Source: an uncultured Acetatifactor sp.
GTDB taxonomy: Bacteria; Bacillota; Clostridia; Lachnospirales; Lachnospiraceae
Direction of reading: 5' to 3'
NCBI GenBank assembly: GCA_947589075.1
Contig: CANQBS010000022.1
Coordinates: forward strand, 1 to 34,669
DNA: 34,669 nucleotides
Shown: one piece after another, positions 5,101 through 21,329 of the stretch
How the letters are laid out: each line of letters begins with the position of its first letter
How positions within the stretch are numbered: the first letter of the stretch is position 1
Position numbers and translations under genes: made by a program
Notes under the pieces: generated by a model
Databases searched by the model: none
The model's input: the letters and a program-made list of their open reading frames with translations, nothing else
What the model was told of the DNA's origin: nothing

Positions 5101-6357
5101 ATGGATATTGACTCCTTATGTATGAGGTGTATGAAAGGTACAGTAAAAGCCGGGACATGCCAGGTGTGCGGCGCCCGGTTCCCGGAGCCCAGGGCCGCCC
5201 ATGCGCTTCCTCTGAAAACAATACTTCATGGACGATATTTGGTGGGCTCCATATTGGGAGCCGGAGGTTTTGGAATTACTTATGCGGCATATGATATCCT
5301 TGGCCAAAGCCGGGCAGCCATCAAGGAATATATGCCGCTAAGTCTGGCATCCAGGCAGGCTGACGGGCTTTCCTTAAAATCAGAGAGTGATTCCCGTTGG
5401 TATGAGTGGGGAATGGAACGGTTTGAGCAGGAAGCGCGAATCATCTATCGATATCGCGGGAATCCCAATATCGTGCAGGTGAGCCAGATCTTTCGGGAGA
5501 ATCATACTTCCTATTATGTGATGGAGTACCTGCAGGGTGAAGATCTGCATCATTATGTGCTTGCCAGGGGAGGAAAGGTTTCCTGGGAAAACCTGGAATG
5601 CTTCGTGGTACCGATCCTGGATATTTTGGAAAAGGTTCACAAGGACGGGATCATCCACCGGGATATCAGTCCGGAAAACATATATATCACCGGCAGGGAT
5701 ACGGCAAAGCTCATTGATTTCGGGGCGGCAAAGGGATATTTATCCCATGCCAGCAAATCCATTATTTTAAAAATGGGCTATACGCCCCCGGAACAATATT
5801 TATATCATGGAAACCAGGGACCCTGGAGCGATATTTATGCTCTGTCCGCTACCATTTACAATTGTCTGACGGGGGTGTGTCCCCCGGACGCGTCGGAAAG
5901 AGTGGTGGACGATAAACTCGTTCCTTTGGGTGAATTTCCGATCCAGCTTCCTTCCAATGTGGAAAAAGCCCTGATGAAAAGTCTAAAGCTGCAGACAGAC
6001 CAGCGATATCAGGATGTCGCTTCCTTTCGCGGAGATCTTTTGGGAATGGGAAAGAGGACAGGTCCCCGGTTAAAAGGGATTTCGGGGAGATATCAGGGAA
6101 AAGAATTTTTCCTGGAAGAGAAAACGGTGGTTGGCAGGGATGCAGAATGTCAGATCGCCTTTCCCCAGGAGGAAGCGGGGGTCAGCAGGCTCCATTGTCA
6201 GTTTATCTTAGAGGGAGACAGCGTTTTTGTTATGGATCTGAATTCTACCTACGGAACTTCTGTAAACGGGTCAAGGATCATGCCGGGATACTGGTATCCC
6301 ATAAAAAACGGGGACCTGATCCTGGTAGGACGCAATCAATTGTGTCTGGTTGTTTAA
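5101..6357 (+). CDS. Soluble Ser/Thr protein kinase with N-terminal zinc ribbon and C-terminal FHA domain
   Basis: A 418-residue protein predicted to phosphorylate Ser/Thr residues in the cytoplasm; no membrane segment is seen. Four cysteines (C7, C10, C20, C23) form a CxxC-x9-CxxC zinc-ribbon-like head. The kinase domain (about 46-310) has the glycine loop GAGGFG, Lys75 in AAIKEY, the catalytic loop HRDISPEN at 186-193 and DFG at 206-208; a PPEQY replaces the usual APE. The lysine normally in HRDLKPEN is serine. The C-terminal FHA domain (about 322-418) has GR at 345-346, SRLH and NSTYGT, all expected for phospho-threonine binding. A well-spaced AAAGGAAG site precedes the ATG. It is the first gene of the block, and the only one of the four kinases with its own FHA reader. 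Confidence 0.92.
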   Translation: MDIDSLCMRCMKGTVKAGTCQVCGARFPEPRAAHALPLKTILHGRYLVGSILGAGGFGITYAAYDILGQSRAAIKEYMPLSLASRQADGLSLKSESDSRWYEWGMERFEQEARIIYRYRGNPNIVQVSQIFRENHTSYYVMEYLQGEDLHHYVLARGGKVSWENLECFVVPILDILEKVHKDGIIHRDISPENIYITGRDTAKLIDFGAAKGYLSHASKSIILKMGYTPPEQYLYHGNQGPWSDIYALSATIYNCLTGVCPPDASERVVDDKLVPLGEFPIQLPSNVEKALMKSLKLQTDQRYQDVASFRGDLLGMGKRTGPRLKGISGRYQGKEFFLEEKTVVGRDAECQIAFPQEEAGVSRLHCQFILEGDSVFVMDLNSTYGTSVNGSRIMPGYWYPIKNGDLILVGRNQLCLVV

Positions 6358-6435
6358 ATGACAGGAAGCTTAAATGCCGGGAGGCGGACACGGACAGAGA
6401 TGATAAATTGTTTTAGGAAAGGAAAAGGGCGGAAT

Positions 6436-8067
6436 ATGGGGAAAAGGTTTGGAATAGCAGCTGCGGCCGGTATGCTGATCAGTATCCTGTGCTGCAGGAA
6501 TGTATGGGCGGCCGATATCTATGAAATAGAGGCAGAGCGTTATCAGGCACAGGAAGGGCTCCTGACTCTTTATGTGGGGCAGAGCGGAGGCATGGATCAG
6601 GAACTGCCGGAACAGGTCAGGGTCACTGCCGGCGGGATCCCGTTGTCGGTGAAGAGTGTGGAACGGCTGGGCGAAACGGGGCGCGGAATAAATTATCTCT
6701 GTCTGGTGGATGTATCCGGAACCATTAAGGATGCGGGCCTGGAAGAGATAAAACAGGTGCTGCTGGGACTGTCGGACAGGCTTAAGGAGCAGGATCAGAT
6801 CTGCATCGCCACAGTATCGGATGCGGTAAGTTTCAGTGGGTGGCTTCGGGCGGAAGATCTGCCGGAGGCGGCAGGAAAGCTGGAACGGACCAGGAAGGAT
6901 ACCAATCTATATGCCGGGATCGTGGATTCCATCAAATATCTGCAGGAACAGGATGACGGAAGCGTTCAGAGTTGTCTTGTGGTATTCTCGGATGGAGAGG
7001 ATGATTTTCGCACCGGCATTACCAGGGAGGAAGCGCTCAAAGCTGTGGAGGAAGCCAACATTCCAACCTTTACGGTTTCAATTCTGCAGTCGAAACCCCG
7101 GAAAGGGGAGGACGAGATATCCAAGCAGTTCGGCAGTTTTGCCAGAATGAATCCGGAAGGCGTGGCCATGGTCCCGATCCTGGAGGAACTGTCGGGGGAG
7201 GATATGGCGGATATCATTGTAAATGCTGTGGATTCCATCCTGGTTATTCAGGCAGACCTGAGCGGATACCAAGGGAGCGGCCAGATCTGGCTGGAGGTGG
7301 AAACCGTTCTGGCCGGAGGCAGCAGGGGTGTTTCGGGTCTTTATCTGCCGGGAAGCAAGCTGGAAGAAGGCATGCTGCCAGAACAGAAGGAGCCGTCGGA
7401 GGAACAGACGGAGGAACAGACGGAGGAAACAGCCTCCTCTGAGACGGAACCGGAGGAAGGATTACAGGATCAGGAAGGAACAGAAGACCAGGAAACGGTA
7501 CCCTTTGATCTGATGAAGATAGCGGCTTTGGCAGGCGCTGCAGCCGTGGCATTGATCCTGATTTTGATCCTGGTCCTGTGGAATAGGAAGAAGAAAGCGA
7601 AATCGCCCGGCAGCGCCGATCCCCTGGAAACCCAGCCTGTTCCGGAAACGACATCCGACCAGGCCGTTACGGAGGCACAGCCGCAGCAGGAACCGGTACA
7701 GGAACAGGCACAGGAATCAGCACAGAAACTGCAGCCTGTCAGACCGGCGGAAGCCGTGATCGTCCTGAAAATGATCGAGATGGGACGTCAGGGTACGGTG
7801 AACAGGAGAACCCCTTATCAGATTACAGTGGGAAAAGAATTCCGCATCGGCAGGGAGGCGACCAAGTCAGATCTGGCGATCAGCGACGATCCGACCCTGT
7901 CGGCCTGTCATTGTATCCTCTCCTACAGTAATGGGAGGCTGACGATCAGAGACAATCATTCTGTCAATGGAACCTATTTGAATGGGATCAGGATCAACAG
8001 GACAGAGATGGTGAATCTGGGTGACAGGATTTTGATCGGGAACAGGGAGTACCGGATTTATCAATAA
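6436..8067 (+). CDS. Membrane protein with extracellular VWA domain and cytoplasmic FHA domain
   Basis: The start is placed at the ATG at 6436 because it opens a clear signal peptide (MGKRFGIAAAAGMLIS..., possible cleavage after NVWA). The frame stays open back to 6358, directly after the kinase stop. The 543-residue protein then has a von Willebrand A domain (about 60-270) with MIDAS-like residues D92-V-S94-G-T96, T156 and D186. An acidic Glu/Gln/Thr linker (about 315-358), a membrane helix (362-382) followed by NRKKK, a Gln/Glu/Pro-rich linker and a C-terminal FHA domain (about 440-543; GR at 472-473, SACH at 489-492, NHSVNGT) complete it. The topology is VWA outside, FHA inside. VWA domains usually bind protein ligands through a metal, so the protein may couple a surface interaction to phospho-signalling. 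The ligand is unknown. Confidence 0.85.
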   Translation: MGKRFGIAAAAGMLISILCCRNVWAADIYEIEAERYQAQEGLLTLYVGQSGGMDQELPEQVRVTAGGIPLSVKSVERLGETGRGINYLCLVDVSGTIKDAGLEEIKQVLLGLSDRLKEQDQICIATVSDAVSFSGWLRAEDLPEAAGKLERTRKDTNLYAGIVDSIKYLQEQDDGSVQSCLVVFSDGEDDFRTGITREEALKAVEEANIPTFTVSILQSKPRKGEDEISKQFGSFARMNPEGVAMVPILEELSGEDMADIIVNAVDSILVIQADLSGYQGSGQIWLEVETVLAGGSRGVSGLYLPGSKLEEGMLPEQKEPSEEQTEEQTEETASSETEPEEGLQDQEGTEDQETVPFDLMKIAALAGAAAVALILILILVLWNRKKKAKSPGSADPLETQPVPETTSDQAVTEAQPQQEPVQEQAQESAQKLQPVRPAEAVIVLKMIEMGRQGTVNRRTPYQITVGKEFRIGREATKSDLAISDDPTLSACHCILSYSNGRLTIRDNHSVNGTYLNGIRINRTEMVNLGDRILIGNREYRIYQ

Positions 8068-8098
8068 GAAACCGAAAAAGGAATGGGAGGATCGTGTA

Positions 8099-9214
8099 AT
8101 GAAAGAAAAAGGAAAGAGATGCCTTACAGCAGTTTTGTGCTGTGTTCTGATCCTGCTGCTGTGGATGGGAAACGGGAGGACAGCGGATGCTTCTGAAGGG
8201 ACGGACACAATCTATGCGGTGCGTCTTTGTCTGTATGATGCGGATGGGGTGATGGTTGGGACAACTTCCGCTTTCGCACTGAAAGATCCGGATACGGGAG
8301 ATATATTCCTTTGCAGCTGGCTGAATCCTTTTAAGGAAAGCGATTATAGAGATATTGTTGTTTGTTATGGGACGGATATATTGACATACGCTTCCCTTTA
8401 TTATGCAGGCAAATATGCCGTTTTATTGCAAATGGAGCAGATACCGGACAATCTGATGATCTTCCCCGTAAAATCTCTTGAAGGCGTGGAAAAAGGCGCC
8501 GAGATTGTTGTTATCGGGACTGCGGCCAGTGAAGATCAGGAGGAAGGGTATGTATTTTATAGTTTAGCGAGTGAAATAAACACGTTTTATCAGGAGGAAC
8601 AAGATTCGGCCGCCATCGGAGGAGAACTGACAAAGGAACAGCCGTCGGCGTTGTACGGCGGGGTTGTAGTAGAAAACGGCACCAGTTATGCCATTGGCGT
8701 TCTGATCAACGAAAATCAGTTCTATTCGCCGTCCCTCCTTCTGGAGGAAACCCGGGATTCCAATCCCCAGCCTTTTCAGTTCGAACTTCAAAAGGACTAT
8801 TGGATGATCCTGGTGGGGATCGGGGGGCTGGGAGGGCTCTATTATCTGTATAAAAATAAAAAGGGCTATGTGAAGAAGGGAAGCGGAACACAGGGCGCGG
8901 CAGTTTATGTATTGAAGGGAAGGGGCGGACATTTTCAGGGCATGAGTCTTCCTTTTAAGGGGGAACTTACCATCGGGAGAGATTCCCGGGTATGTAACCT
9001 GGTATTCCCGGAAAACACTTCCGGTATCAGCAGGAAGCATTGTTTAATCAGTGCGGAAGAGGAGAAAGTTACCTTATGTGATCTGAATTCCAGCTACGGA
9101 ACCTATCTGGAGAATGGGGAACGGCTGGAACCGGGCAGGAGCTATTCGCTTCAGGCGGGAGATCGTTTTTATCTTGCCGGAGCTGAAAATATGTTTAGCA
9201 TAGAAAAAAAATAA
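8099..9214 (+). CDS. Membrane protein with degenerate trypsin-fold-like ectodomain and cytoplasmic FHA domain
   Basis: The 371-residue protein starts with a signal peptide (basic residues, then AVLCCVLILLLW), behind GGGAGG at 8-base spacing. Residues about 35-225 are predicted outside. The pattern (GTTSAFAL near the start, AGKYAVLLQ, then VEKGAEIVVIG, ending in GGVVVENGTSYAIGVL) resembles the strand order of HtrA/trypsin-like domains. No His-Asp-Ser triad or GNSGGP motif is visible, so it would be a pseudo-peptidase; this fold assignment is inference. One membrane helix (about 235-251) is followed by KNKKGYVKKG and an FHA domain (about 271-371) with TIGRD, SRKH and NSSYGT. The layout parallels the VWA-TM-FHA protein encoded just upstream. 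Confidence 0.75.
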   Translation: MKEKGKRCLTAVLCCVLILLLWMGNGRTADASEGTDTIYAVRLCLYDADGVMVGTTSAFALKDPDTGDIFLCSWLNPFKESDYRDIVVCYGTDILTYASLYYAGKYAVLLQMEQIPDNLMIFPVKSLEGVEKGAEIVVIGTAASEDQEEGYVFYSLASEINTFYQEEQDSAAIGGELTKEQPSALYGGVVVENGTSYAIGVLINENQFYSPSLLLEETRDSNPQPFQFELQKDYWMILVGIGGLGGLYYLYKNKKGYVKKGSGTQGAAVYVLKGRGGHFQGMSLPFKGELTIGRDSRVCNLVFPENTSGISRKHCLISAEEEKVTLCDLNSSYGTYLENGERLEPGRSYSLQAGDRFYLAGAENMFSIEKK

Positions 9215-9229
9215 TGGAGGAAATGAATC

Positions 9230-9907
9230 ATGGAAATGAAGCAATGCAGCAGCGGAAGGCACTATTATGATGCCTCAATTTATTCGGAGTGTCCTTATTG
9301 CAAGGCGGATGCCAGCGGGATGTCGGAGAACTTTACCAGGCCCCTGTTTGATGGAAATGGAGACGGAGCCGCCATGGCTATGAACAACGGAGATTCCTTT
9401 GCAGGAGGGGCGGGAGGATTTCAGAACGCCAACAGGACTGTGCCCCTGGTAGGCGATGCGTTTCCTCAGTTTGAGGAAATGCAGGAAAATTCAAGCCAGA
9501 TGGGTCAGGGCAGCAGGACCGTGGCCGTGATCAAGGAAGAGTTGGGAATGGATCCAGTGGTGGGCTGGCTGGTGTGCCGTAAAGGACCGGATAAGGGGAA
9601 AGATTTTCGCCTTCATTCCGATTATAACTATATTGGCCGCAGTGAAAGAATGGATGTCTGCGTACATGACGATACGATATCCAAGGAGAACCATGCCGTG
9701 GTAGGCTTTGATACCAGGGACGAGGTATTTTATTTTGGTCCTGCAGGCGGCCGTGGAATCGTCAGGGTAAATGGAAAGGCATTGTTGAATACTGTGGAGA
9801 TCAAGATTTATGACAGGCTGGAAATCGGACGATCTGAATTTATTTTTGTTCCTCTTTGCGGGGAAAAGTTTTCTTGGAAGGATGAAGAAAAGGGTGAAGA
9901 CAAATAA
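9230..9907 (+). CDS. Soluble FHA-domain protein with N-terminal zinc-finger-like motif
   Basis: A 225-residue protein with no signal or membrane segment. The head carries C6, H11, C21-P-Y-C24, a likely zinc site. A flexible Gly/Asn/Met-rich region (about 30-105) contains two similar short motifs, NRTVPLV and SRTVAVI. The C-terminal FHA-like domain (about 112-215) has IGRS, but where typical FHA domains read S-x-x-H this one reads SKENH. The usual N-x-x-G-T turn is replaced by GGRGIVRVNG. Phospho-threonine binding may therefore be altered or lost. Short Thr-containing segments ahead of an FHA domain are phosphorylated in mycobacterial GarA; whether this applies here is speculation. GGAGG lies 9 bases before the ATG. 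Confidence 0.82.
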   Translation: MEMKQCSSGRHYYDASIYSECPYCKADASGMSENFTRPLFDGNGDGAAMAMNNGDSFAGGAGGFQNANRTVPLVGDAFPQFEEMQENSSQMGQGSRTVAVIKEELGMDPVVGWLVCRKGPDKGKDFRLHSDYNYIGRSERMDVCVHDDTISKENHAVVGFDTRDEVFYFGPAGGRGIVRVNGKALLNTVEIKIYDRLEIGRSEFIFVPLCGEKFSWKDEEKGEDK

Positions 9908-11216
9908 ATCGAAAAGAGGCAGATTGTTTTGTTTCCTGTTGTGCTGTCTGCTGCTTGGAGGAACGGCGGGGAGCGGAGCAATGATCCGGGTATCCGCCGC
10001 CGGAACGGAACCGGGTGTTTCAGCGGAAGAAACGGTAAGGGAGGATCTGACCGGGGAAACAACGGAAGAGGCCGAAGAGGAACGGGGAACGGTGGAAACG
10101 ACGGCAGAGGCCGACGAGGAACAGGGAACAGTGGAAACGACGGCAGAAGCCGACGAGGAACAGGGAACCGAAGGGACGGACGAGACGAAAGAGACGGAGG
10201 AGACCCAGGAACCCCAGACAGATCTCCCGAGTATTTTGCCGTCAGAGGAGCAGCAGGGGGAAACCCTGAGGATGGTTCTCCAGGTTTCCCCCTGGATCCT
10301 GGCAGGTATCGTCTGTGTATTGGCCGCCGGAATCCTGCTCTGGTATATTCTGCGGCATTCAAAGGCGGGAAAAGAGGAAATAAAGGTGAAAACGGAAGCG
10401 CAGACAAAGCAGACAGGACAGGAATCCGGGGAAGACGAACCGCAGACGGCGAAAGAATCGCCAGTACGCATTGCCAGCGTCCATAACGTCGGAAATCGGG
10501 AAAGCCAGCAGGATTCCTTCGGAGTTTCTGAGTGGAAGAATCCAAAGCTTTTCCGGGAAAAAGGAATCCTGGCGGTAGTGGCGGATGGAATGGGCGGTCT
10601 GGAGGACGGGGCGGAGATCAGTTCCAGGGCCGTAGTGGCTATGATGCAGTATTTTCACGCGAAACCTGTAACAGGTACCATGTCCCAATTTTTGCTTTAT
10701 ATGCTGCAGGCCGCGGTTGAACAGGTGAACCGTTATCTGGGATCGGCCGGGATCGGCCGGGGCGGCACCACTCTTGTGGCGGTGGTGGTGAGGGATAGAT
10801 ACTTTGACTGGATTTCAGTGGGAGACAGCCGTATCTATTTATACCGTAATGAAACCCTGATGCAGGTCAACAGCGAGCATGTCTATGCCGTAGAACTGGA
10901 TGAAAAGGCGGCGAGAGGGGAGATTTCCCTGCAGCAGGCAATGTCTGATCCCCAGAGGGAGGCTCTCACCAGTTATGTTGGAATGGGCGATTTAAAACAG
11001 ATCAGCCGGAATATCCGTTCCATGCGCCTGCAAAAAGGAGACCGTATCCTTTTGATGTCGGACGGCATATATAAGACTTTATCGGATCAGGAGATCTCAG
11101 ATGCCATGAAGAAGCCGCTTCAGGAAAGTGCTGCGGACTTAAACCAGGGGATCTGTCAGTACCGGAAATCGCACCAGGATAATTATACCGCAGTCATTCT
11201 GGAGTATTTGGGATAA
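9882..11216 (+). CDS. Membrane-anchored PP2C-family protein phosphatase
   Basis: Predicted metal-dependent Ser/Thr phosphatase that would reverse the neighbouring kinases. The start is uncertain. ATG 9882 (used here, 444 residues) overlaps the previous gene by 26 bp and touches GGAAGG. GTG 9894 sits about 11 bases after that site and may be better placed. Both give a basic N-terminus and a hydrophobic signal/anchor (LFCFLLCCLLLGG). An acidic segment with a 13-residue repeat (DNA 10071-10169) is predicted outside. A membrane helix (about 138-160) then leads to a cytoplasmic PP2C domain (about 195-444). Metal-ligand motifs are D211 in QQDSFG, ADGMGG with D235, SDGIY with D394 and QDNYTAV with D433. 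Confidence 0.9.
   Translation: MKKRVKTNKSKRGRLFCFLLCCLLLGGTAGSGAMIRVSAAGTEPGVSAEETVREDLTGETTEEAEEERGTVETTAEADEEQGTVETTAEADEEQGTEGTDETKETEETQEPQTDLPSILPSEEQQGETLRMVLQVSPWILAGIVCVLAAGILLWYILRHSKAGKEEIKVKTEAQTKQTGQESGEDEPQTAKESPVRIASVHNVGNRESQQDSFGVSEWKNPKLFREKGILAVVADGMGGLEDGAEISSRAVVAMMQYFHAKPVTGTMSQFLLYMLQAAVEQVNRYLGSAGIGRGGTTLVAVVVRDRYFDWISVGDSRIYLYRNETLMQVNSEHVYAVELDEKAARGEISLQQAMSDPQREALTSYVGMGDLKQISRNIRSMRLQKGDRILLMSDGIYKTLSDQEISDAMKKPLQESAADLNQGICQYRKSHQDNYTAVILEYLG
10071..10169 (+). repeat. In-frame 39-bp tandem repeat in the PP2C ectodomain
   Basis: Two near-identical 39-bp units (10071-10109 and 10110-10148) and a partial third (10149-10169) encode a 13-residue acidic unit of the form ADEEQGTVETTAE. 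The repeats lie in the predicted extracellular linker before the membrane helix. Confidence 0.85.
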
Positions 11217-11229
11217 CAGGAGAATCACT

Positions 11230-11952
11230 ATGATGGAATATGGGCAGCTTACCGGAATTGGCGGAAGAAAGGTAAATGAAGATTTTACGGAGGCAAAAAC
11301 CTTCCCCGGAGGAATCTGTGTCGCCCTGGCCGACGGACTGGGGAGCTATGGAGGCGGTGAAATCGCCTCCCGGCTGGCGGTGCAGCACTTTCTCCAGGTC
11401 TATAAACCCGGAATGTTGTATGGGGATGGGGTCGGTGAAATATGTCAGGATATTCACAGGCAGATCTGTCAGCAGCAAACGTTGTCCTGTGAAATGAAAT
11501 CCACGCTGGTGGTGCTGATGGCAGAAGGAGAGCATGTGCGGTGGATGCACATCGGGGACAGCAGGCTCTATCATTTTACGGAAGAAGGGCTGGCTGAACG
11601 GACTCTGGACCACAGCGTTCCTCAGATGGCGGTGGCGATGGGGGAGATCACAGAAAAAGAAATCCGCTGTCATGTTGACCGCAATAAGGTACTGAGAGCC
11701 TTGGGAAGCCGGGACGGCGCACGTCCCGAGCTTTCATCGATAAAGACCCTGGGGAAAGGATTCCATGCCTTCCTGCTCTGTACGGACGGTTTTTGGGAGT
11801 ATGTCCTGGAGGAGGAAATGGAACTGGATCTGTGCCGTTCCCAATCTCCCGTACAGTGGTTAAAATTTATGGAGGAACGGCTGAAAAAGAAAGTCATAGG
11901 TGAAAATGACAACTATACCGCAGCGGCAGTCTTCCTGGAGCTGCCGGAATGA
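11230..11952 (+). CDS. Soluble PP2C-family protein phosphatase
   Basis: A 240-residue cytoplasmic phosphatase consisting only of the PP2C domain. Metal-binding residues are present: D18 in NEDF, D35 in ALADGLGSYGGG, D186 in CTDGFWEYV and D227 in NDNYTAA. Two central motifs differ from the membrane phosphatase just upstream: ADGLGS replaces ADGMGG, and the protein is shorter. It starts 13 bp after that gene behind AGGAGA; ATG 11233 is an equal alternative. Adjacent, non-identical phosphatases, one membrane-bound and one soluble, suggest different substrates or compartments for the same kinase set. Activity is inferred from conserved aspartates only. Confidence 0.9.
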   Translation: MMEYGQLTGIGGRKVNEDFTEAKTFPGGICVALADGLGSYGGGEIASRLAVQHFLQVYKPGMLYGDGVGEICQDIHRQICQQQTLSCEMKSTLVVLMAEGEHVRWMHIGDSRLYHFTEEGLAERTLDHSVPQMAVAMGEITEKEIRCHVDRNKVLRALGSRDGARPELSSIKTLGKGFHAFLLCTDGFWEYVLEEEMELDLCRSQSPVQWLKFMEERLKKKVIGENDNYTAAAVFLELPE

Positions 11953-12015
11953 CGGACGGCCGGGGAACGAAAGGAACAGGACTGGATGTTACGAAGGAAG
12001 GGGCAGTGAAAAAGG

Positions 12016-14307: not shown

Positions 14308-14309
14308 GG

Positions 14310-15827
14310 ATGGAAAATAAAACTTTTTTTCGAAAGGCCCAGACAGGTGATCTTCATTTTAAAGACATTTTTTCGGATGTAAACAAGAAACATACTTCCA
14401 AGGATACAGCGCAGATGTTCATTGCCGGCACGCCGATGACGACTCCGGATGAAAGGGATATGCTGGTCAGCTGGAACAAGCCCTTTGTGTTTGCACGTTT
14501 CTTTTTGTGGGGAGCGGCAGCGCTGGCAATTTTATATTTCCTTTATCGGTGTTTTAAAAGTGCTTATTCCTTATATGCGCTGCTCAGCCTCATGCCGTGC
14601 CTGGTGCCCATCGCATGTCTGCTCTTGGTATGGGAACTGCATATTCCGCGGAATATTTCTCTTTATGAAGTGCTGCAGATGGTCATTGTGGGCGGAGCAT
14701 TATCCCTGCTGTTTACTTTTATTTTCGGTGTGTTTCGTCAATCCCTGCTGGGAATAAGCGGCGCTATCTGGGCCGGTCTGACGGAAGAACCGGCGAAGCT
14801 GCTGGCGGTTTGCATTTTCCTGAGGAAGAAGGATCGAAAGTACCTTTTAAATGGGCTGTTGATCGGTTTTGCGGTGGGGGTTGGTTTTGATTTTATGGAA
14901 AGCATTGGTTATACCTTTGAAGCCCTGGTAAATGGTATTGTGAAGGTTATTTTTGACGGAGATAATTTTAAAATCTTTGTTAATAGTATAGCCAATGGGG
15001 ACATTGACTACTTAAACAAAATTATTGGAGAAGTCATTGAGATAGGTCAGGAGCGTGCGTTGAGAGAAGCTCTTCTCAGGAGTTTGAACGCTTTTGCCGG
15101 TCACGGGTTATATGCTTCTTTATACGGAGGAGCGTTGGCTCTGGCAAAAGGAAAAGAGTCCCTGGAGGCACGGCACTTTACTAATCCAACATTCTTGACA
15201 TGCTTCGCTATCAGCATCGGGATCCATACTTTGAATAACAGCGGCATCAGCCTGGGTCTGCCTCCTCTTTTCGGACTTCTTCGTGTGGAATATGTGATCA
15301 TCCAGGCGATCGCAATCGCCATCTGGTTCCTGGTTTTAAAGCGGGGAGTCAACCAGGTGGTACAGATCGCGCTGGCGCATAACAAGGAACGCCTCACCAT
15401 GGCCGTGCGGGGATCCGGAGACAGTATGCCGGTAAATCCGGGACAGGCAGCCAATTTGGGAAATAACGTTCCTTTGGCGGCTCAGCCCAGACAAGATGGG
15501 AACGGCCAGGCGTCCGGCGCCTGTTGTCTGCAGGGCGTGGCCGGGGAATATTCCGGCAGGAAGATCCCTCTGAAACCGGGAATGGCGCTGCGGATCGGTC
15601 GGGATCCTCAAAGAGCCTCGCTTTCCCTGCCGGGTTCTGTCAGAGTCAGCGGCCTGCACTGCGAGGTGCTCTTCGACGGACGGGATGTGCTGATCCGGGA
15701 TCTGGGATCCACCAACGGGACCTACATAGACGGGAAACGGATTCCGCCCCAGCAGGGCGTGAAGGTGCCCCAGGGCAGTAAAATCTATCTGGGGGATGGA
15801 AATTGTTGTTTTGTTATAGTAAAATAA
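14310..15827 (+). CDS. PrsW-family intramembrane protease fused to an FHA domain
   Basis: The start at 14310 is fixed by GGGGAGG nine bases upstream; it lies 2 bp after the kinase stop. The 505-residue protein has a soluble head (about 1-55), then a multi-pass membrane region (about 58-355). That region holds the motifs of PrsW (M82) glutamic intramembrane proteases: E159-E160 in AGLTEEPAKL, E197 in GFDFMESIGY, H265 in AGHGLYA and H306-x-x-N309 in GIHTLNN. A linker leads to a canonical FHA domain (about 405-505) with RIGRD, SGLH and STNGTYIDG. PrsW in Bacillus subtilis cleaves the anti-sigma factor RsiW. Here the FHA suggests that cleavage or substrate choice depends on a phospho-threonine partner. 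No anti-sigma factor gene is seen nearby, so the substrate is unknown. Confidence 0.88.
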   Translation: MENKTFFRKAQTGDLHFKDIFSDVNKKHTSKDTAQMFIAGTPMTTPDERDMLVSWNKPFVFARFFLWGAAALAILYFLYRCFKSAYSLYALLSLMPCLVPIACLLLVWELHIPRNISLYEVLQMVIVGGALSLLFTFIFGVFRQSLLGISGAIWAGLTEEPAKLLAVCIFLRKKDRKYLLNGLLIGFAVGVGFDFMESIGYTFEALVNGIVKVIFDGDNFKIFVNSIANGDIDYLNKIIGEVIEIGQERALREALLRSLNAFAGHGLYASLYGGALALAKGKESLEARHFTNPTFLTCFAISIGIHTLNNSGISLGLPPLFGLLRVEYVIIQAIAIAIWFLVLKRGVNQVVQIALAHNKERLTMAVRGSGDSMPVNPGQAANLGNNVPLAAQPRQDGNGQASGACCLQGVAGEYSGRKIPLKPGMALRIGRDPQRASLSLPGSVRVSGLHCEVLFDGRDVLIRDLGSTNGTYIDGKRIPPQQGVKVPQGSKIYLGDGNCCFVIVK

Positions 15828-15920
15828 ATGGCGGGCGCCTGCGTGAAATCCTTTTGGAAAGAATCGTGCCTTTGCTTTGAGCTGACGCAGGAAACGGCAT
15901 TTGGAGGAGGAAGTCATCAA

Positions 15921-18900
15921 GTGGATATCAATTTTTGTCCTTATTGCATGAATCCGCTGAAAGAAGGGGAGGCTTGTACAGTATGCGGGCTGAAGGAAGG
16001 AGCCTATACGCCCAAAGGCCATCACCTGCCCCTGGGAACGGTTTTACAGGACCGCTATCTGATCGGGCGGGTTCTGGGCGAAGGGGGATTCGGCATCACT
16101 TATATTGGGCGGGATCTGAGACTGGACATGAAGGTGGCTGTCAAGGAATATTATCCTACGGATAAGGGATATCGGTATTCCCAGGCATCCCTGCGGATAT
16201 CTCCCTATGCCCATGCGCAGAAGAGCTTTCAGACCGGCAGGGAAAGGTTCCTTAAGGAAGCCCAGACCATGGCTCTTCTGGAAAAACAGCCAAACATTGT
16301 GAGCGCCCGGGATTTTTTTGAGGAAAATGATACCGCTTATATCGTTATGGAATATGTTGAGGGAACGACGCTGAAGGAACTGGTCAGCCAGAGGGGAGGA
16401 AGGATTCCTGAGGAGGAATTGTTTGATCTGCTGAAGCCCCTGTTCCCTGCTCTGGAATCCGTCCATGAACTGGGACTGATCCATCGGGATATCAGCCCGG
16501 ATAACCTGATGCTGGAAAAAGGAAGGATCAGACTTTTGGATTTCGGATGCGCCAGGGATACTAACGTTGAAGCTCAGACCCTTACCGTTGCCCTTAAGCA
16601 GGGGTATGCTCCCGTTGAGCAATATCAGCAGAAGGGACAGGGAACCTGGACAGATGTATATGCTTTATCCGCCACGATTTATTATTGCCTGACCGGGAAG
16701 ACACTGCAGTCGGCGGTTGACCGGCTGGATGAGGATGAAATCGTGCTTCCCAGACAGCTGGGGGTGAAGCTTTCGCCGGAGAGGGAAGAGGCACTGATGA
16801 AGGGCCTGGAGATCAACTACCACAAGAGATATCAGACGGTGAAGGAACTGTATAAAGGTCTGTACCAGGAAAAACATCCTGCGGCGGGAAAGAAGCGTAT
16901 GGCGGTGATACTGGCGGCAGTTGGTGCGGCGTTTTTTCTGGCGGCGACGGCGGGAATAATTTATTTGGTCTTCTGCTGGCAGGAAAACTCCGCGAAGGGA
17001 TCATCCGGAGAAATCGCTGCGGGAAACAGCAGCCTGGAGGACTTATTTGCGGATGCCGCTGTCCTGGAAAGCTTTTCCCGGGAGAAGCTCCAGGACATGC
17101 TGGCAGATGATTCCATAAAGGCCGTCAGGATCGCGGAGGGAAATTATTTCAGCAATCAGGAAACGGCGGGACAGATCACTGTCACCAAGCCGCTGTTGAT
17201 CGAAAGCGGAGTCCGGCTCTCTTTATTTGACATGCTGACGATCCGGGGAGAAGACGCCTGTGTCTGGGTCCGGGGTTGTTTGAGCGGGACATACGATATC
17301 CGTACCATGGAAGGGGGAAGGATCATCGTAGATGAGGGTGCCGAACTGTACGGCAATTTTATCTGGCTGGAAGATGTTCGGGATCTGGAAACCTGGAATG
17401 AGGATGCGATTCAATTCAATAAACAGATTCTTGGAAGTATGGAGAGCCGTTTTCAGGGTGCAGCAAAGGTGAAGGATGAGCAAGAGCTGCGCAGGGCAGC
17501 GGAGGACGGCGGAGATATCGTTGTCGCCGGAAAGATCGTCCTGCAGGATTCTCTGGATGTGCATTTCTCTATTCTGGTGAAGGAGGGAGCATCTTTGTCC
17601 GCGGAAGGGGAAATCGCGCTGAATCTGAAGGATGGAGAACTTTGGAATCAGGGGGAAATCAGCCTCCGGGTGAACATGCAGGAAGGACGTGGCCTTATCA
17701 ATGAAGGAAAGATTCAATCGGATCTCAGCATACGGGACAGTGAACTGCTGTTGAATTTGGGAGAAATTACCCTAAAAGGGGACAGCAGCATGGAGGGCTG
17801 GCTCTTTATCTATAATATGGGAGAACTGACCTTTGTCAGTGTAGGAGGAGATCAACGCTTCAACCTGGATAATTTCGGATCCCTTGTATTTCGGGAAAAT
17901 CAGAAATTGTACCTGACGGGCGGCACTTGGATCAGAAACTTCGGAAATTTGGTGTTGGAGGACGGTGTCCGTCTTGTGAACAGGAATTATTTATGCAATG
18001 ACGATGACGGCCGGATCTTTCTGCAAAGCGGCGCTGTCTGGGATAATCAGGGTATCATTCGAGTGAATGCCGGAGAGATCCAGGTGGAGGAAGGCGCGGA
18101 ATTCCAAAACGAAAACGGAGCAGTCATCTATCTATATCCGGAAGAAAACATCCCTGTGAAAAATGGGGTCTTGACAGTCCTCCACAAAGGGGATGCCTTT
18201 GAGCTGGATATCAGCACCATGGATGTGGACAATGTACAGGACCTGAAGGAAATGCTGGCCAGTCCTTACGTGAAGAGGATCCGTATCTCCGGATCCATTC
18301 AGTGGCCGGAGGAGATCCTTACCATTGATAAGGAAGTGGAGGTCTGCACTGACAGCATCCTGACTCTGGAGAAAGGAGCGGAGCTTGTGGTGGACGGCGG
18401 CATCCTGCTCAATAACAGCTACCTGCAGACGGATCGGATGACCATATGCCGGGGAGGATCCTTTGTCAATAACGGGGAATTTGATATGGTGGATGCCGAC
18501 AGCCTCTTAAGGCTTGACGGCGGGCAGGAGGAATCTTCGGATGGGACGGTCAGCTTTGAAAACGATGGAACCTGCGATCTGAAAGGCGGTTTGCTGGAGA
18601 TTTTCGGCAAGGCAGCGGGCTGTAACTTCAATATAATGAAGGGCGCAAGCTTCCAGATCGGTCAGTCTGGATGCTTCATACAGTTGGGTCAGATGATGGA
18701 GTGGACGGCGGGAGGAACTATGAGGCTGTCCGGCGGCGGAGAATTCCGCGATTTGGTGTATGAGAACTGCGATGAAGGTTATTCCTTTGATGTGCAGGAA
18801 GGCGGACGTCTTTTCTTTTCTGCCGGGGCGCAGATATCCGGCGGGAGTCTCCTGCTGGCTCCAGGCGCATTTGTGAAAATCAGCGGCGGATATTACGATT

Positions 18901-19178
18901 TCTGTGAAGGGATGTCGTTTATAAATGAAGGACGGACAGTGCTGGAAAACTGTACGATCAATTTGCAGAACGGCTGTACGAACCGGGGGAGCATGGAAAT
19001 CTCCGGATCATGTGAAATCCATCTGAGCGGGAAGACGCATTCTTCCATCCTGGACAATCAGGGGGAGATCCGTGTTTTGCCGCAGGAGGATATATCGGAT
19101 CCTTTGGCATTATACATGGAATATGGGGAACTTACGGGAAACGACATTGTTTATGAATCAGATGCGGGTGTCCATTAA
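15921..19178 (+). CDS. Transmembrane Ser/Thr kinase with very large repetitive ectodomain
   Basis: The start is GTG 15921, supported by AGGAGG ten bases upstream and because it places the catalytic lysine at residue 75 as in the other three kinases. The frame is open back to 15828. The 1,085-residue protein has a CPYC...CTVC zinc-ribbon-like head, a kinase domain (about 46-310) with GEGGFG, HRDISPDN at 188-195, DFG at 207-209 and YAPVEQY, then a membrane helix (about 327-350). The remaining 730 residues are predicted outside and consist of short strands with recurring Gly/Asn turns (such as GGRIIVDEGAELYGN, FVNNGEFDMVD, LWNQGEISLR). This suggests a right-handed beta-helix or adhesin-like solenoid. 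The ligand is unknown. Confidence 0.9.
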   Translation: MDINFCPYCMNPLKEGEACTVCGLKEGAYTPKGHHLPLGTVLQDRYLIGRVLGEGGFGITYIGRDLRLDMKVAVKEYYPTDKGYRYSQASLRISPYAHAQKSFQTGRERFLKEAQTMALLEKQPNIVSARDFFEENDTAYIVMEYVEGTTLKELVSQRGGRIPEEELFDLLKPLFPALESVHELGLIHRDISPDNLMLEKGRIRLLDFGCARDTNVEAQTLTVALKQGYAPVEQYQQKGQGTWTDVYALSATIYYCLTGKTLQSAVDRLDEDEIVLPRQLGVKLSPEREEALMKGLEINYHKRYQTVKELYKGLYQEKHPAAGKKRMAVILAAVGAAFFLAATAGIIYLVFCWQENSAKGSSGEIAAGNSSLEDLFADAAVLESFSREKLQDMLADDSIKAVRIAEGNYFSNQETAGQITVTKPLLIESGVRLSLFDMLTIRGEDACVWVRGCLSGTYDIRTMEGGRIIVDEGAELYGNFIWLEDVRDLETWNEDAIQFNKQILGSMESRFQGAAKVKDEQELRRAAEDGGDIVVAGKIVLQDSLDVHFSILVKEGASLSAEGEIALNLKDGELWNQGEISLRVNMQEGRGLINEGKIQSDLSIRDSELLLNLGEITLKGDSSMEGWLFIYNMGELTFVSVGGDQRFNLDNFGSLVFRENQKLYLTGGTWIRNFGNLVLEDGVRLVNRNYLCNDDDGRIFLQSGAVWDNQGIIRVNAGEIQVEEGAEFQNENGAVIYLYPEENIPVKNGVLTVLHKGDAFELDISTMDVDNVQDLKEMLASPYVKRIRISGSIQWPEEILTIDKEVEVCTDSILTLEKGAELVVDGGILLNNSYLQTDRMTICRGGSFVNNGEFDMVDADSLLRLDGGQEESSDGTVSFENDGTCDLKGGLLEIFGKAAGCNFNIMKGASFQIGQSGCFIQLGQMMEWTAGGTMRLSGGGEFRDLVYENCDEGYSFDVQEGGRLFFSAGAQISGGSLLLAPGAFVKISGGYYDFCEGMSFINEGRTVLENCTINLQNGCTNRGSMEISGSCEIHLSGKTHSSILDNQGEIRVLPQEDISDPLALYMEYGELTGNDIVYESDAGVH

Positions 19179-19210
19179 GGATGCCGTTATGGAGAAAGGA
19201 GTCTGCGAAG

Positions 19211-20278
19211 ATGAGCAGAGAGTATTGTATCTATTGCATGAATCCTGTGGAGGAAGGGACGAGCTGTCCGGTATGCGGGCTGAAAAAAGGGGTCTATGTA
19301 GGCGACCCTCATCAGTTGCCGCCGGGCACCGTTCTGGCGGATCGATATCTGATTGGACGTGTGCTGGGCGGAGGCGGATTTGGCATCACTTATCTGGGGT
19401 ATGATACCAGGCTGGAGCTGAAGGTGGCGGTCAAGGAATATTTTCCTACGGACAGCGCTTACCGGATCGCGTCAGAGTCTCTAAAGGTATCCAGCTATGC
19501 GGGGAACGCATCCGACCGCTATGAGGAAGGCAAGCTGAAATTTATCAGGGAAGCTCATGCCATGGCCCGCATGGAAAAGCAGCATGCCATCGTTACCGTG
19601 AGGGATTATTTTGAGGAAAACAATACGATTTATATTGTCATGGAATATGTGGAGGGGGTCACTCTGCGGGATCTGGCGGCCCAAATGGGAGGAAAAATAG
19701 CCGTGACAGAGCTTTTGGATATTCTGGAGCCCTTATTTGGGGAACTGGGGATCATGCATGAACAAAAGCTGATTCACCGGGATATCAGTCCGGATAACCT
19801 GATGCTGGAAAAGGGAAAAATACGCCTTATCGATTTCGGCTGCGCGCGGGAAGCCGCTACAGGAACGGAAACCCTGACTATTTCCTTAAAAAATGGATTC
19901 GCTCCCATCGAGCAATATCAGCACAAAGGACAGGGTCCCTGGACAGATGTATATGCCCTGTCCGCAACCATTTATTTCTGTCTTACGGGAGTGGTCCCGC
20001 CTCAGTCCATTGACCGCCTTTACCGGGATGAACTGATCCCGCCCAGGGAACTTAAGGTGAAACTGAGCGCCGGGCAGGAGAGAGCGCTTTTATATGGTAT
20101 GGGGATCCGGCCAAGGAGACGCTTTCAGTCCATGCAGGAACTGCATGCCGCATTGTACGAAGGTTTTTTTGAGGAACCGAAACCGGAGCTGTCAGACGGC
20201 GGATCAAAAGGTCTGGAAAAAATACCTAAGTATCTGCAAAGACTCGGGAAATCACATTCTCAATCCTTTCGCTCATAG
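19211..20278 (+). CDS. Soluble zinc-ribbon Ser/Thr protein kinase
   Basis: The start at 19211 follows AAGGAG at nine bases and again places the catalytic lysine at residue 75; the frame is open to 19181. The 355-residue protein has a CIYC...CPVC head and a kinase domain (about 46-310) with GGGGFG, HRDISPDN at 189-196, DFG at 208-210 and FAPIEQY. It closely resembles the preceding kinase (shared runs such as RYLIGRVLG and GFGITY), so the two are probably a tandem duplication. Unlike that paralogue it stops soon after the kinase domain with no membrane helix. Its last 17 codons lie over the 3' end of the convergent gene, so the tail may have arisen by loss of an ectodomain. Confidence 0.9.
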   Translation: MSREYCIYCMNPVEEGTSCPVCGLKKGVYVGDPHQLPPGTVLADRYLIGRVLGGGGFGITYLGYDTRLELKVAVKEYFPTDSAYRIASESLKVSSYAGNASDRYEEGKLKFIREAHAMARMEKQHAIVTVRDYFEENNTIYIVMEYVEGVTLRDLAAQMGGKIAVTELLDILEPLFGELGIMHEQKLIHRDISPDNLMLEKGKIRLIDFGCAREAATGTETLTISLKNGFAPIEQYQHKGQGPWTDVYALSATIYFCLTGVVPPQSIDRLYRDELIPPRELKVKLSAGQERALLYGMGIRPRRRFQSMQELHAALYEGFFEEPKPELSDGGSKGLEKIPKYLQRLGKSHSQSFRS

Positions 20279-21329
20279 GTTCATCGGAAGCGGCGATGGC
20301 GTAGAGCACCAGCCAGTCCATGGCGTCGCGGGGATCTAAGAGGGGCATACCGCAATCGGTCAGGATCGCGTTCAGCGTCCACCAGTGATCATCCACCCGT
20401 TCTTCCAGGGAAATAAAGTCCTCGTCCATTTCATGATATTCGTCATCCAGGATGTTTTCCGTGACCACATAGAGCAGAAGCAGCAGCTTCCGGGGGACGT
20501 CTTCCCTGTGGCTGCGGATATTCTTAAGGGATGTTGTATTTGGCCAGTTCTGTTTGAGCAGCTTCTGCGTTACGTTATATCCGGACCGGTTTTTCCCGGA
20601 AGGCATTTTCAGGGACAGATAAAGATCCATGATCGCTTCCAGGGAATAATCCGGTTCATTTTCATCCTCTAGCAGGGAAGAAGTAGGGTGGATCAGCTGA
20701 TCCAGGTATTTTTCAAAATAGGAGTAAGCTCTCATATGGAGCCGACCGAAATTTTCCAGGTTCTCCAGGTAACAGTCCCGTAATTCCTCCAGAGTCTGGA
20801 TATGTGAAAAGGCGTTCTGCACCTGCCTTGTGATATGGGAAACCGGGGCAGGGGAAATCTGGTCGAACCGGGGAGCGGGCGGAAGAGTCTGGAAAAAATC
20901 CCTGGCCTCCCTGTAGCTGCGGTTTGTTCGCAGGAACCAGGAATAGACTACATCCCGCCCTTCGCGGTAATGGATTCCGTAATCAGTACAGATTCCAAGA
21001 AGATAGCTGGTCTGCTGCTCTGTCAGGTCGAGAGTAAAGGCAATGCGGAAGATATCTTCCCTGTTCGTGGGCTGGTTGCTGCCGGAGAGCCAGTTGCGGA
21101 TACGGCGTTGTACAGATTCCGGGCTCGCCTTGGTTTCTTCTGTCAGGAAGGCAGAAACGAGTTTTGAGAACAGGTCGGGTTCAGGATAAATCTCCCTAAG
21201 GGTTTCACCGAAACTGCGCAGGGAAATGCGTTCCCCTTTCAGATATTCTGCAGCCATGGCCGGCGTAAATTTCCCGGAAAGGATGCGCTTGTATTCTTCT
21301 TCTGATGTATGGGTCAGTTCGATATTCAT
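20226..21329 (-). CDS. Conserved-looking protein with possible N-terminal helix-turn-helix-like region; function unknown
   Basis: The 367-residue start at 21329 is supported by AAGGAG six bases upstream. I do not recognise a named family with certainty. Residues about 60-130 (RRIRNWLSGSNQP, REDIFRIAFTLDLTEQQTSYLLG) have the spacing of an XRE-like helical domain, which suggests DNA binding or a Cro/CI-like fold. The rest is helical and acidic, with no membrane segment. The gene faces the kinase operon, overlaps its last gene by 53 bp, and has its own promoter. It could regulate or accompany the cassette, but this is inferred from position only. Confidence 0.6.
   Translation of the reverse strand: MNIELTHTSEEEYKRILSGKFTPAMAAEYLKGERISLRSFGETLREIYPEPDLFSKLVSAFLTEETKASPESVQRRIRNWLSGSNQPTNREDIFRIAFTLDLTEQQTSYLLGICTDYGIHYREGRDVVYSWFLRTNRSYREARDFFQTLPPAPRFDQISPAPVSHITRQVQNAFSHIQTLEELRDCYLENLENFGRLHMRAYSYFEKYLDQLIHPTSSLLEDENEPDYSLEAIMDLYLSLKMPSGKNRSGYNVTQKLLKQNWPNTTSLKNIRSHREDVPRKLLLLLYVVTENILDDEYHEMDEDFISLEERVDDHWWTLNAILTDCGMPLLDPRDAMDWLVLYAIAASDEPMSERIENVISRVFADT

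What the first reader, a model, noticed from the sequence alone, without database searches (positions are those of the whole stretch)
5101..20278. Ten-gene kinase/PP2C/FHA cassette with its own intramembrane protease: a candidate undescribed signalling system
Seen: ten plus-strand genes with gaps of 2-93 bp and one overlap encode four Ser/Thr kinases, two PP2C phosphatases and five FHA domains. The FHA domains are on a kinase, VWA membrane protein, trypsin-like membrane protein, soluble zinc-finger protein and PrsW protease. Known: FHA domains bind phospho-threonine; PP2C removes phosphate. Inference: a closed write-read-erase circuit across the membrane, with intramembrane proteolysis as a possible output. 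I know of no named system with this gene set. Secretion genes (EssC, WXG100, T6SS parts) that sometimes accompany FHA clusters are absent here.
Basis: partly seen in the sequence, partly recalled or inferred. Interest (0 to 1): 0.85.

Follow-up and report, generated by a model that had tools for sequence, protein, structure and literature searches.

The report
Phospho-threonine signalling cassette with tethered protease
A relative of gut Clostridia carries an inserted set of about eleven genes that look able to write, read and erase phosphate tags on a scaffold protein and to hang a membrane-cutting protease on that tag; the set recurs in many Clostridia, and I found no description of it as a system.

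Summary
Ten plus-strand genes (5101-20278) encode four zinc-ribbon kinases, two PP2C phosphatases and five FHA domains, one on a PrsW intramembrane protease. One label fails: the "trypsin-like" protein has no Pfam trypsin match and lacks the catalytic motifs.

Of 47 PrsW-FHA loci, 44 have a kinase, 43 a PP2C and 39 a g4-type protein nearby; of 32 PrsW loci with no FHA found, one, one and none (mostly other phyla). In 14 same-genus genomes with both flanks found, the site is empty in 7 and holds a PrsW-less version in one.

New here: (1) g4's family carries 0-8 linker copies of T-x-P-[V/L/I/M] (235 against 7.8 expected in 110 further homologues; Ser far weaker), as expected of a phosphothreonine scaffold read by FHA domains, though several same-genus g4 proteins lack it. 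(2) A missed minus-strand gene (20229-21329) has relatives beside kinases in 10 of 10 further loci, nine without the cassette; probably a regulator.

Best explanation: kinases phosphorylate g4, which gathers FHA proteins including PrsW; proteolysis and the regulator are outputs. No biochemistry was tested; PrsW's substrate is unknown.

The parts
5101..6357 (+). g1: zinc ribbon - Ser/Thr kinase - FHA (FHA 6124-6330)
   Evidence: Pfam; motifs
6436..8067 (+). g2: signal-peptide-like start (by eye) - VWA - TM - FHA (ORF opens at 6358; likely start 6436; FHA 7843-8040)
   Evidence: Pfam; start choice and TQPV in the linker; TM by hydropathy
8099..9214 (+). g3: signal peptide - beta-rich ectodomain (possible trypsin-like pseudoprotease) - TM - FHA (8969-9175)
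   Evidence: Pfam (FHA only); no His/Ser motif; hhalign; AlphaFold model, mean pLDDT 72.7
9230..9907 (+). g4: zinc-ribbon-like start (CxxG..YD..CPYC) - linker - FHA (9632-9829); candidate phosphothreonine scaffold
   Evidence: alignment A6; motif tests
9335..9346 (+). g4 motif TRPL (T36)
9437..9448 (+). g4 motif TVPL (T70, nearly invariant column)
9518..9529 (+). g4 motif TVAV (T97)
9882..11216 (+). g5: TM-anchored PP2C phosphatase (ORF opens at 9810; likely start 9882)
   Evidence: Pfam; TM by hydropathy
11230..11952 (+). g6: soluble PP2C phosphatase
   Evidence: Pfam
12016..14307 (+). g7: zinc ribbon - kinase - TM - repeat-rich ectodomain
   Evidence: Pfam
14310..15827 (+). g8: N-terminal segment - PrsW intramembrane protease - FHA (15591-15794) (ORF opens at 14292)
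   Evidence: Pfam; invariant E165 E166 K169 E203 H271 H312 N316 in 33 rows; model pLDDT 89.5
15921..19178 (+). g9: zinc ribbon - kinase - TM - long repetitive ectodomain (ORF opens at 15828; likely GTG start 15921)
   Evidence: Pfam; a kinase with related ectodomain in the PrsW-less cassette of G005
19181..20278 (+). g10: zinc ribbon - kinase, no TM found
   Evidence: Pfam
20229..21329 (-). REG: uncharacterised protein, probable regulator (HTH-like segment by eye only), convergent with the cassette
   Evidence: homologues beside some cassettes; 77% identical to the one in G005; beside kinases elsewhere; no match over a cut-off
4878..4902 (+). terminator-like hairpin after yitT, ahead of the cassette
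   Evidence: 10 pairs then T run
21453..21481 (+). promoter-like site (TTGACA-17-TATGAT) before ylxM-ffh, after the cassette
   Evidence: 11 of 12 matches

Best explanation
This is an accessory signalling cassette. Membrane-spanning zinc-ribbon kinases (g7, g9) and cytosolic ones (g1, g10) sense a cue and phosphorylate threonines in T-x-[P/A]-[V/L] motifs of the soluble scaffold g4. FHA domains on the kinase g1, the membrane proteins g2 and g3 and the protease PrsW-FHA (g8) then bind the scaffold, so that phosphorylation gathers or positions a membrane complex; the PP2C enzymes g5 and g6 undo it. Placing PrsW beside a single-pass membrane partner (one of g2, g3, g5, g7, g9, or a protein encoded elsewhere) lets it cut that partner, giving an irreversible output. 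REG, of a family found beside kinases elsewhere, is a likely gene-expression output. Shown: gene content, conserved catalytic residues, recurrence as a unit, motif enrichment, insertion at a site empty in relatives, REG-kinase adjacency. Inferred: phosphorylation of the motifs, FHA binding to them, recruitment, cleavage, DNA binding by REG.
For: Domains and active sites. Co-occurrence: of 47 PrsW-FHA loci, 44 with kinase, 43 with PP2C, 39 with g4 family, 38 with another TM-FHA protein, 24 with kinase-FHA, 18 with VWA-TM-FHA; of 32 PrsW loci with no FHA found, 1, 1 and 0 with kinase, PP2C and g4 (the PP2C case, L075, is a contig cut inside prsW that holds an FHA fragment). Distances of PrsW-FHA and four partners correlate, r 0.66-0.85, 0 of 2000 permutations as high. 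All 9 of 397 genomes of the window's taxonomic family with full-length PrsW-FHA are among the 57 with g4; p about 1e-8. Scaffold: T.P[VLIM] 71 observed against 2.4 in 34 linkers and 235 against 7.8 in 110 further linkers; S.P[VLIM] 0 against 2.2, and 15 against 8.2; 405 neighbouring ORFs show no excess (64 against 57.2). FHA domains accept pThr rather than pSer and read the +3 residue (established knowledge). REG: a kinase is adjacent in 9 and one gene away in 1 of 10 further loci.
Against: No phosphorylation, binding or cleavage data exist. Of six g4 proteins in five same-genus PrsW-less genomes, four lack T.P[VLIM]; those of G005 (same site) and G019 lack T.[PA][VLIM] too. 4 of 40 g4 proteins in the mapped loci lack T.P[VLIM]. 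In 58 kinase activation loops that fit my pattern, the residue matching the motif is more often Ser (S..[VLIM] 27, T..[VLIM] 10; 13 hold T.[PA][VLIM]), so a kinase preference for the motif is not supported. Motif number against number of FHA partners is weak (rho 0.44, p 0.004, n 40, not corrected for kinship; with T.[PA][VLIM] rho 0.27, p 0.10). g4's own FHA lacks the usual asparagine. L072, with long flanks, has PrsW-FHA without kinase or PP2C. REG lies within reach of only 9 of the 47 PrsW-FHA loci, and no HTH model supports it (best: GgpR repressor, 15.6 bits against a cut-off of 40). Correlated distances would also arise from plain vertical descent.
Confidence: 0.5

Rival explanations
1. 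The cassette is a regulatory module for a secretion machine (type VII or a relative), like the kinase/phosphatase/FHA parts of T7SSc-T7SSj, and acts by assembling an apparatus encoded elsewhere.
For: T7SSc-j loci often carry kinases, PPM phosphatases and FHA proteins and, in T7SSc, a vWA protein (PMC11217815, passages). One relative (L074) has PrsW-FHA, PP2C and kinase beside a 1494-aa FHA-TM-TM protein of EssC-like build, with WXG100 genes on the same contig. Several WXG100 regions of cassette-bearing genomes hold their own kinase or PP2C genes (for example L171, L172, L174, L176, L184), and L179 holds kinase, PP2C and a g4-family gene beside WXG100-like ORFs.
Against: FtsK/EssC was not searched genome-wide.
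Confidence: 0.15
2. PrsW-FHA is the main actor: a phospho-gated site-1 protease for an anti-sigma factor or similar, as in B. subtilis PrsW-RsiW, and the rest tunes its activity.
For: Catalytic residues invariant in 33 rows; it is the only PF13367 match in the assembly; the 2012 authors proposed signalling peptidases for such fusions.
Against: PrsW is dispensable in the wider family: PrsW-less cassettes in the same genus and the same genome, g4 in 57 but full-length PrsW-FHA in 9 of 397 genomes. Pfam shows no anti-sigma factor in the cassette.
Confidence: 0.15
3. The cassette is an anti-phage defence or conflict system placed at an insertion hot spot.
For: Patchy distribution, insertion between housekeeping genes at a site whose content varies between species, an AbiEi-type gene at that site in one species, and kinases that match PADLOC kinase models such as PD-T4-6 and mad6.
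Against: The four kinases each match 34-35 PADLOC models, so these look like general kinase matches; the phosphatases match only PDC-M21C models and the four other genes none. Pfam shows no nuclease or toxin among the ten proteins. Other genes at the site are mixed: transporter, PPK2, transposase, radical SAM.
Confidence: 0.12
4. The T-x-P-V/L repeats bind something other than FHA domains, or are a kinase docking site, and g4 is simply a zinc-ribbon FHA adaptor. (Not exclusive of the other readings.)
For: Motif absent in some g4 proteins; activation loops do not favour it; no binding data.
Against: Thr rather than Ser, a hydrophobic +3 residue and variable copy number fit FHA reading better than kinase docking.
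Confidence: 0.2

Closest known systems
T6SS PpkA-PppA-Fha threonine phosphorylation pathway (PMC12607579, abstract and passages; PMC3953482, listing with start of abstract)
   Same: Inner-membrane Thr kinase, phosphatase and FHA scaffold; phosphorylated Fha promotes assembly of a membrane complex, in one case with condensates
   Different: No T6SS part found here; several FHA readers, some of them proteases in the wider family; separate g4 scaffold; Clostridia
T7SSc-T7SSj kinase/PPM/FHA/vWA components (PMC11217815, passages)
   Same: Kinase, PPM phosphatase, FHA protein and (T7SSc) vWA protein at loci mostly in Bacillota
   Different: Those loci contain the TsxC ATPase and WXG100 TsxA; neither was found here, and this one has PrsW-FHA, VWA-TM-FHA and g4
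M. tuberculosis Rv1747 (review PMC9312465, passages)
   Same: FHA domains and a disordered linker; phosphorylation promotes clustering, PstP reverses it
   Different: One ABC transporter, not a multi-gene cassette; linker repeats of the T-x-P-V/L kind are not described in the passages read
OdhI/GarA FHA phosphoswitch proteins (recalled; NCBIfam model NF041660)
   Same: Small soluble FHA protein with phosphorylatable N-terminal part (recalled)
   Different: g4 scores 20.7 bits against a cut-off of 200; it has a zinc-ribbon-like start and several Thr motifs
B. subtilis PrsW and PrsW-FHA fusions (PMC3482391, passages)
   Same: PrsW domain with conserved motifs; FHA fusion noted in one sentence in 2012
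   Different: Gene context and partners of the FHA fusions are not described in the passages read
Kinase-PP2C-vWA triads of GAP1-N2 systems (PMC7159879, passages); TerY-P triads (recalled)
   Same: Kinase (often with zinc ribbon), PP2C and vWA encoded together
   Different: Standalone vWA there; here vWA is a predicted extracellular domain tethered to an intracellular FHA

Membership tests
PrsW family (M82) | Pfam PF13367 above cut-off with conserved Glu-Glu, Glu and His motifs | tested here: met
   63.2 bits against 23.5; invariant residues in 33 rows
PrsW family (M82) | cleaves an anti-sigma factor (RsiW-like) | not tested
   no anti-sigma factor seen in the cassette by Pfam; substrates not searched
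FHA phosphothreonine readers (g2, g8) | GR, S, H and N residues of the pThr site | tested here: met
   g2 by pattern; g8 by alignment (my pattern missed it)
FHA phosphothreonine readers (g1, g3, g4) | GR, S, H and N residues of the pThr site | tested here: inconclusive
   GR, S and H present; g1 and g3 have YG in place of NG; g4 lacks the N
Type VII secretion system (any subtype) | WXG100 protein | tested here: not met
   0 in the assembly; absent in 27 of 41 genomes searched
Type VII secretion system (any subtype) | EssC/TsxC FtsK-type ATPase at the locus | tested here: not met
   none among the 28 window proteins scanned; not searched genome-wide
Type VI secretion Fha/PpkA/PppA | T6SS structural genes at the locus | tested here: not met
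   none among the 28 window proteins scanned; TagH model 30.5 bits at best against 120.25
Stk1/PknB PASTA kinases | NCBIfam NF033483 cut-off, PASTA domains | tested here: not met
   134-156 bits against 450, match in the kinase region; no PASTA by Pfam
OdhI/GarA | NCBIfam NF041660 cut-off | tested here: not met
   g4 20.7 bits against 200
Trypsin-like (S1) protease, for g3 | Pfam match and catalytic His/Ser | tested here: inconclusive
   no Pfam match; catalytic motifs not seen; hhalign probability 66.7%; fold search rows covered the FHA part only
HTH transcription factors, for REG | match to an HTH family | tested here: inconclusive
   no match over a cut-off in Pfam or NCBIfam and no PDB sequence better than E 0.29; HTH-like segment judged by eye
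Known anti-phage defence systems | complete PADLOC gene set | tested here: inconclusive
   only kinase models and PDC-M21C phosphatase models match; no system rule was applied

The most novel reading that the evidence does not exclude
A bacterial phosphothreonine code on a repeat-bearing scaffold (g4) controls proteolysis: kinases write T-x-P-V/L marks, and FHA-tethered proteases (PrsW within the membrane, HtrA-like trypsins outside it in related cassettes) are recruited by reading them. That would be phospho-gated intramembrane proteolysis, in a modular cassette that swaps readers between species.
Probability: 0.35. Interest if true: 0.88.

Novelty: new variant of a known kind. Interest (0 to 1): 0.72.

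Why it matters
Bacterial Ser/Thr kinases are often known without their readers. Here kinases, erasers, several readers and a candidate multi-site substrate sit in one run of genes, with a substrate motif precise enough to test with peptides. If the FHA on PrsW reads that motif, it gives a direct phosphorylation switch for an intramembrane protease. The g4 family is common (57 of 397 genomes of the window's taxonomic family; 4927 protein clusters over the threshold), so a function found here would help to annotate thousands of proteins.

Tried and rejected
Active trypsin-like protease for g3: rejected (motifs absent), though 18 of the 42 TM-FHA proteins aligned keep both motifs. Foldseek and VIA-align on the g3 model and VIA-align on the g8 model listed FHA-fold matches almost only; their other domains were barely tested. 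Kinase activation loops as a source of the T-x-P-V rule: not supported. Plasmid or phage carriage: 15 plasmid and 5 phage records match, none covering 80% of PrsW-FHA; the rows listed (5 and 5) match the PrsW part only. A first single-sequence scan of genome contigs found no relatives; the alignment scan found 79 loci. A single-sequence search of 61 genomes matched the PrsW part in the window's own genome only. In one search I scanned the wrong ORFs of L012 and missed its second cassette; corrected. Chance clustering: rejected.

Limits and rows dropped. 24 of the 32 control loci come from other phyla, archaea or an unnamed bacterium and one is cut (L075); the 7 uncut Bacillota ones (L077, L078, L080, L089, L091, L094, L099) have no kinase or PP2C. 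6 of 40 g4 linkers, the window's among them, did not fit my linker pattern (all 40 are used); 10 of 120 homologues whose linkers were in earlier loci were dropped, and those 120 are the best of 4927; L079 was left out. One TM-FHA row with four motifs (L052:1727-2362) looks like a piece of a g4 gene. Gene maps come from my own ORF picking and HMMs built from the window's proteins, not from curated annotation. Shuffles keep composition only, and homologous linkers are not independent.
Full report
WHERE IT IS. The window is one contig (C22) of a 3.15-Mb, 163-contig assembly. It lies in the housekeeping run smc-ftsY-ilvA-yitT / ylxM-ffh...rimM-trmD-rplS. Between yitT and ylxM lie 16,546 bp holding ten plus-strand genes and one convergent minus-strand gene. 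A strong terminator-like hairpin follows yitT (4878-4902) and a strong promoter-like site precedes ylxM (21453-21481), so the cassette is probably transcribed on its own; this is inference from consensus scans.

WHAT IT ENCODES. Pfam confirms four kinases, two PP2C enzymes, five FHA domains, one VWA and one PrsW. The catalytic motifs of kinases and phosphatases are present. In an alignment of 33 PrsW-FHA proteins the residues E165, E166, K169, E203, H271, H312 and N316, and the FHA residues G436, R437 and H456, are invariant, with S453 nearly so. [quoted passage not shown] The protein g3 was called trypsin-like; Pfam gives FHA and a related T3SS model only, and the His and Ser motifs are not there. 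Among 42 such TM-FHA proteins (g3 and 41 from other genomes) 20 match Trypsin_2, and 18 keep both TNxH and G[NT]SGGP. So g3 may be a degenerate relative used as a sensor (inference; profile match 66.7%).

IS IT A UNIT? A search with the PrsW-FHA alignment gave 79 loci in named records. In 47 the PrsW carries FHA. Of these 44 have a kinase, 43 a PP2C (36 at least two), 39 a g4-family protein, 38 another TM-FHA protein, 24 a kinase-FHA and 18 a VWA-TM-FHA in the stretch held, up to 10 kb each side. The other 32 loci, with no FHA found, serve as a control: one has a kinase (L097), one a PP2C (L075), none g4. L075 is a 3.2-kb contig that ends inside prsW and holds an FHA fragment, so it is probably a cut cassette. 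The control is imperfect, as 24 of the 32 come from other phyla, archaea or an unnamed bacterium; the 7 uncut Bacillota ones have neither kinase nor PP2C. The four PrsW-FHA loci without kinase or without PP2C are two contigs under 7 kb (L046, L088), one whose contig ends 2.3 kb after the match (L079) and one real exception (L072). Pairwise distances of PrsW-FHA and its partners correlate (r 0.66, 0.74, 0.77, 0.85 with g4, TM-PP2C, kinase-FHA, VWA-FHA; 0 of 2000 permutations as high), which fits travel together or plain descent. Members come from records named Lachnospiraceae, Oscillospiraceae, Christensenella and other Clostridia.

HOW COMMON. Full-length PrsW-FHA is in 9 of 397 genomes drawn from the window's taxonomic family. 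The g4 family is in 57 of the 397, including all 9 (hypergeometric p about 1e-8). 4927 protein clusters match the g4 profile at E 1e-10 or better among 7998 candidates scored. So PrsW is an add-on to a commoner phospho-signalling cassette. The window's own assembly holds a second, PrsW-less cassette on contig C41: two TM kinases, g4 homologue, PP2C, TM-FHA, PP2C. Five same-genus genomes (G005, G015, G019, G026, G035) have PrsW-less sets.

THE SITE. I looked upstream of ffh in 18 same-genus genomes (17, plus G005). In 14 both yitT and ylxM were found; in 4 yitT was not found in the stretch. In 7 of the 14 they are 58-150 bp apart (empty site). In G005 the gap is 11,755 bp and holds a PrsW-less cassette with a kinase of related ectodomain and the same convergent gene. 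In 6 the gap is 1.1-10.4 kb of other genes, among them transporter, PPK2, transposase and AbiEi genes in one species. The cassette is thus an accessory insertion at a variable site, with parts that differ between species.

THE SCAFFOLD. The g4 family starts with a C-x2-G...H-x-Y...C-P-x-C segment, then a linker often rich in Gly, Ser and Pro, then an FHA domain introduced by PVVGWLV. In 34 parsed linkers there are 71 copies of T-x-P-[VLIM] against 2.4 (sd 1.6) in composition-preserving shuffles; S-x-P-[VLIM] 0 against 2.2; T-x-P followed by polar or small residues 8 against 11.0. Over all 40 proteins, 36 have it (81 against 4.1), with T-x-A-[VLIM] 31 against 4.0. The strong excess is confined to g4: 405 neighbouring ORFs have 64 against 57.2; kinases, PP2C, kinase-FHA and VWA-FHA proteins show no clear excess; TM-FHA (29 against 14.0) and PrsW-FHA (6 against 1.2) show small ones. 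In 110 further linkers not contained in those loci: 235 against 7.8, in 108 of 110 proteins, one to eight copies in those that have it, with Ser 15 against 8.2. Threonine with a hydrophobic +3 residue is what FHA domains read (established knowledge). The number of motifs rises with the number of FHA partners (rho 0.44, p 0.004, n 40), but weakly, without correction for kinship, and not significantly when T-x-A is included (rho 0.27, p 0.10). Against: of six g4 proteins in the five same-genus PrsW-less genomes, four lack T-x-P-[VLIM] (G005, G019, two of G026), and those of G005 and G019 lack the T-x-A form too. The window's g4 has TRPL, TVPL and TVAV.

THE MISSED GENE. The minus-strand ORF 20229-21329 (REG) is real: 77% identical to the one beside the G005 cassette and 59% to that of L052. 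Homologues lie beside cassettes in L044, L045, L047, L048, L049, L052, L062, L063 and L064 (9 of the 47 PrsW-FHA loci, so it is not universal within the stretches held), and in L153 and L161; L163 repeats L062. It is found in 16 of 397 genomes, 9 of them with g4 (p about 7e-5). I fetched ten of the 16 (three were already seen, and the three weakest, G171, G252 and G433, were not fetched): a kinase lies next to REG in nine and one gene away in one (L228), and only one of the ten loci (L227) has the FHA cassette. These kinases match my kinase HMM; nine of the ten showed no N-terminal zinc ribbon by my pattern. REG has no match over a cut-off in Pfam or NCBIfam and none of note in PDB; an HTH-like segment is my reading by eye. 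I propose that it is a kinase-controlled regulator.

SECRETION. WXG100 is absent from this assembly and from 27 of 41 genomes searched (own and 40 of the 47 PrsW-FHA loci). Where present it is on the cassette's contig in two cases only, one about 20 kb off (L055) and one near an EssC-like protein (L074). The module therefore does not need T7SS. It has evident kinship with T7SS-linked kinase/PPM/FHA sets: several WXG100 regions in these genomes hold their own kinase or PP2C genes, one with a g4-family gene (L179), and T7SSc-j loci are described with such parts (PMC11217815, passages).

HOW IT MAY WORK. Sensor kinases phosphorylate g4; g4 with several pThr marks gathers FHA proteins at the membrane; PP2C enzymes reverse it; PrsW, brought beside a single-pass partner, cuts it; REG changes expression. 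Models for the gathering step are T6SS Fha-PpkA condensates (PMC12607579, abstract and passages) and Rv1747 (PMC9312465, passages). PrsW-FHA as a signalling peptidase was suggested in one sentence in 2012 (PMC3482391, passages).

LITERATURE. In the library of 5.39 million open papers, none holds 'FHA domain', PrsW, 'protein kinase' and phosphatase together; two hold PrsW and FHA as whole words, of which I read passages of the first; other searches listed related systems but no description of this gene set in the listings and passages I saw. Most subscription journals and bioRxiv are not covered.

VERDICT. The system is an undescribed variant, as far as these searches reach, of bacterial kinase/PP2C/FHA modules, with two testable points: the T-x-P-V/L scaffold and FHA-tethered proteolysis.

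Noticed in passing
window 20229-21329 (-); L221-L226, L229, L230: REG family lies beside a Ser/Thr kinase gene even in genomes without the FHA cassette at that locus: a possible two-gene kinase-regulator module.
   Followed up: partly
L012:3730-12348 (own assembly, contig C41): A second, PrsW-less cassette in the same genome: two TM kinases, g4 homologue with TVPV and TVAV, PP2C, TM-FHA, PP2C; a 555-aa protein with sigma-70-like domains lies about 5 kb downstream (17405-19072).
   Followed up: partly
L013 (own assembly, contig C25): FHA protein, PP2C and three TM kinases (854, 674 and 740 aa, the last reaching the edge of the locus): another kinase/PP2C/FHA locus.
   Followed up: no
L011:12093-13325 (own assembly, contig C43): DUF6382-FHA protein at the end of a contig beside Tad pilus genes (TadZ-like, T2SSE, T2SSF), the domain build reported for TsxJ in T7SSe/f, but no WXG100 in the assembly.
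   Followed up: no
L074 (Clostridia RGIG3744): PrsW-FHA, PP2C and kinase next to a 1494-aa FHA-TM-TM protein, EssC-like by build only, with WXG100 genes on the contig: a link between this cassette type and T7SS.
   Followed up: partly
L100 ([Clostridium] asparagiforme): PP2C, standalone VWA, kinase, PP2C and PrsW-FHA within about 10 kb: a TerY-P-like triad (name recalled) near a second PrsW-FHA in one genome.
   Followed up: no
window about 13150-13350 (g7 stalk): Imperfect repeats around TDTFPVSEGTE just after the TM of kinase g7; they contain T-x-P-V on the predicted outer side.
   Followed up: no
L079, L082, L084, L087: Two tandem PrsW-FHA genes in one cassette.
   Followed up: no
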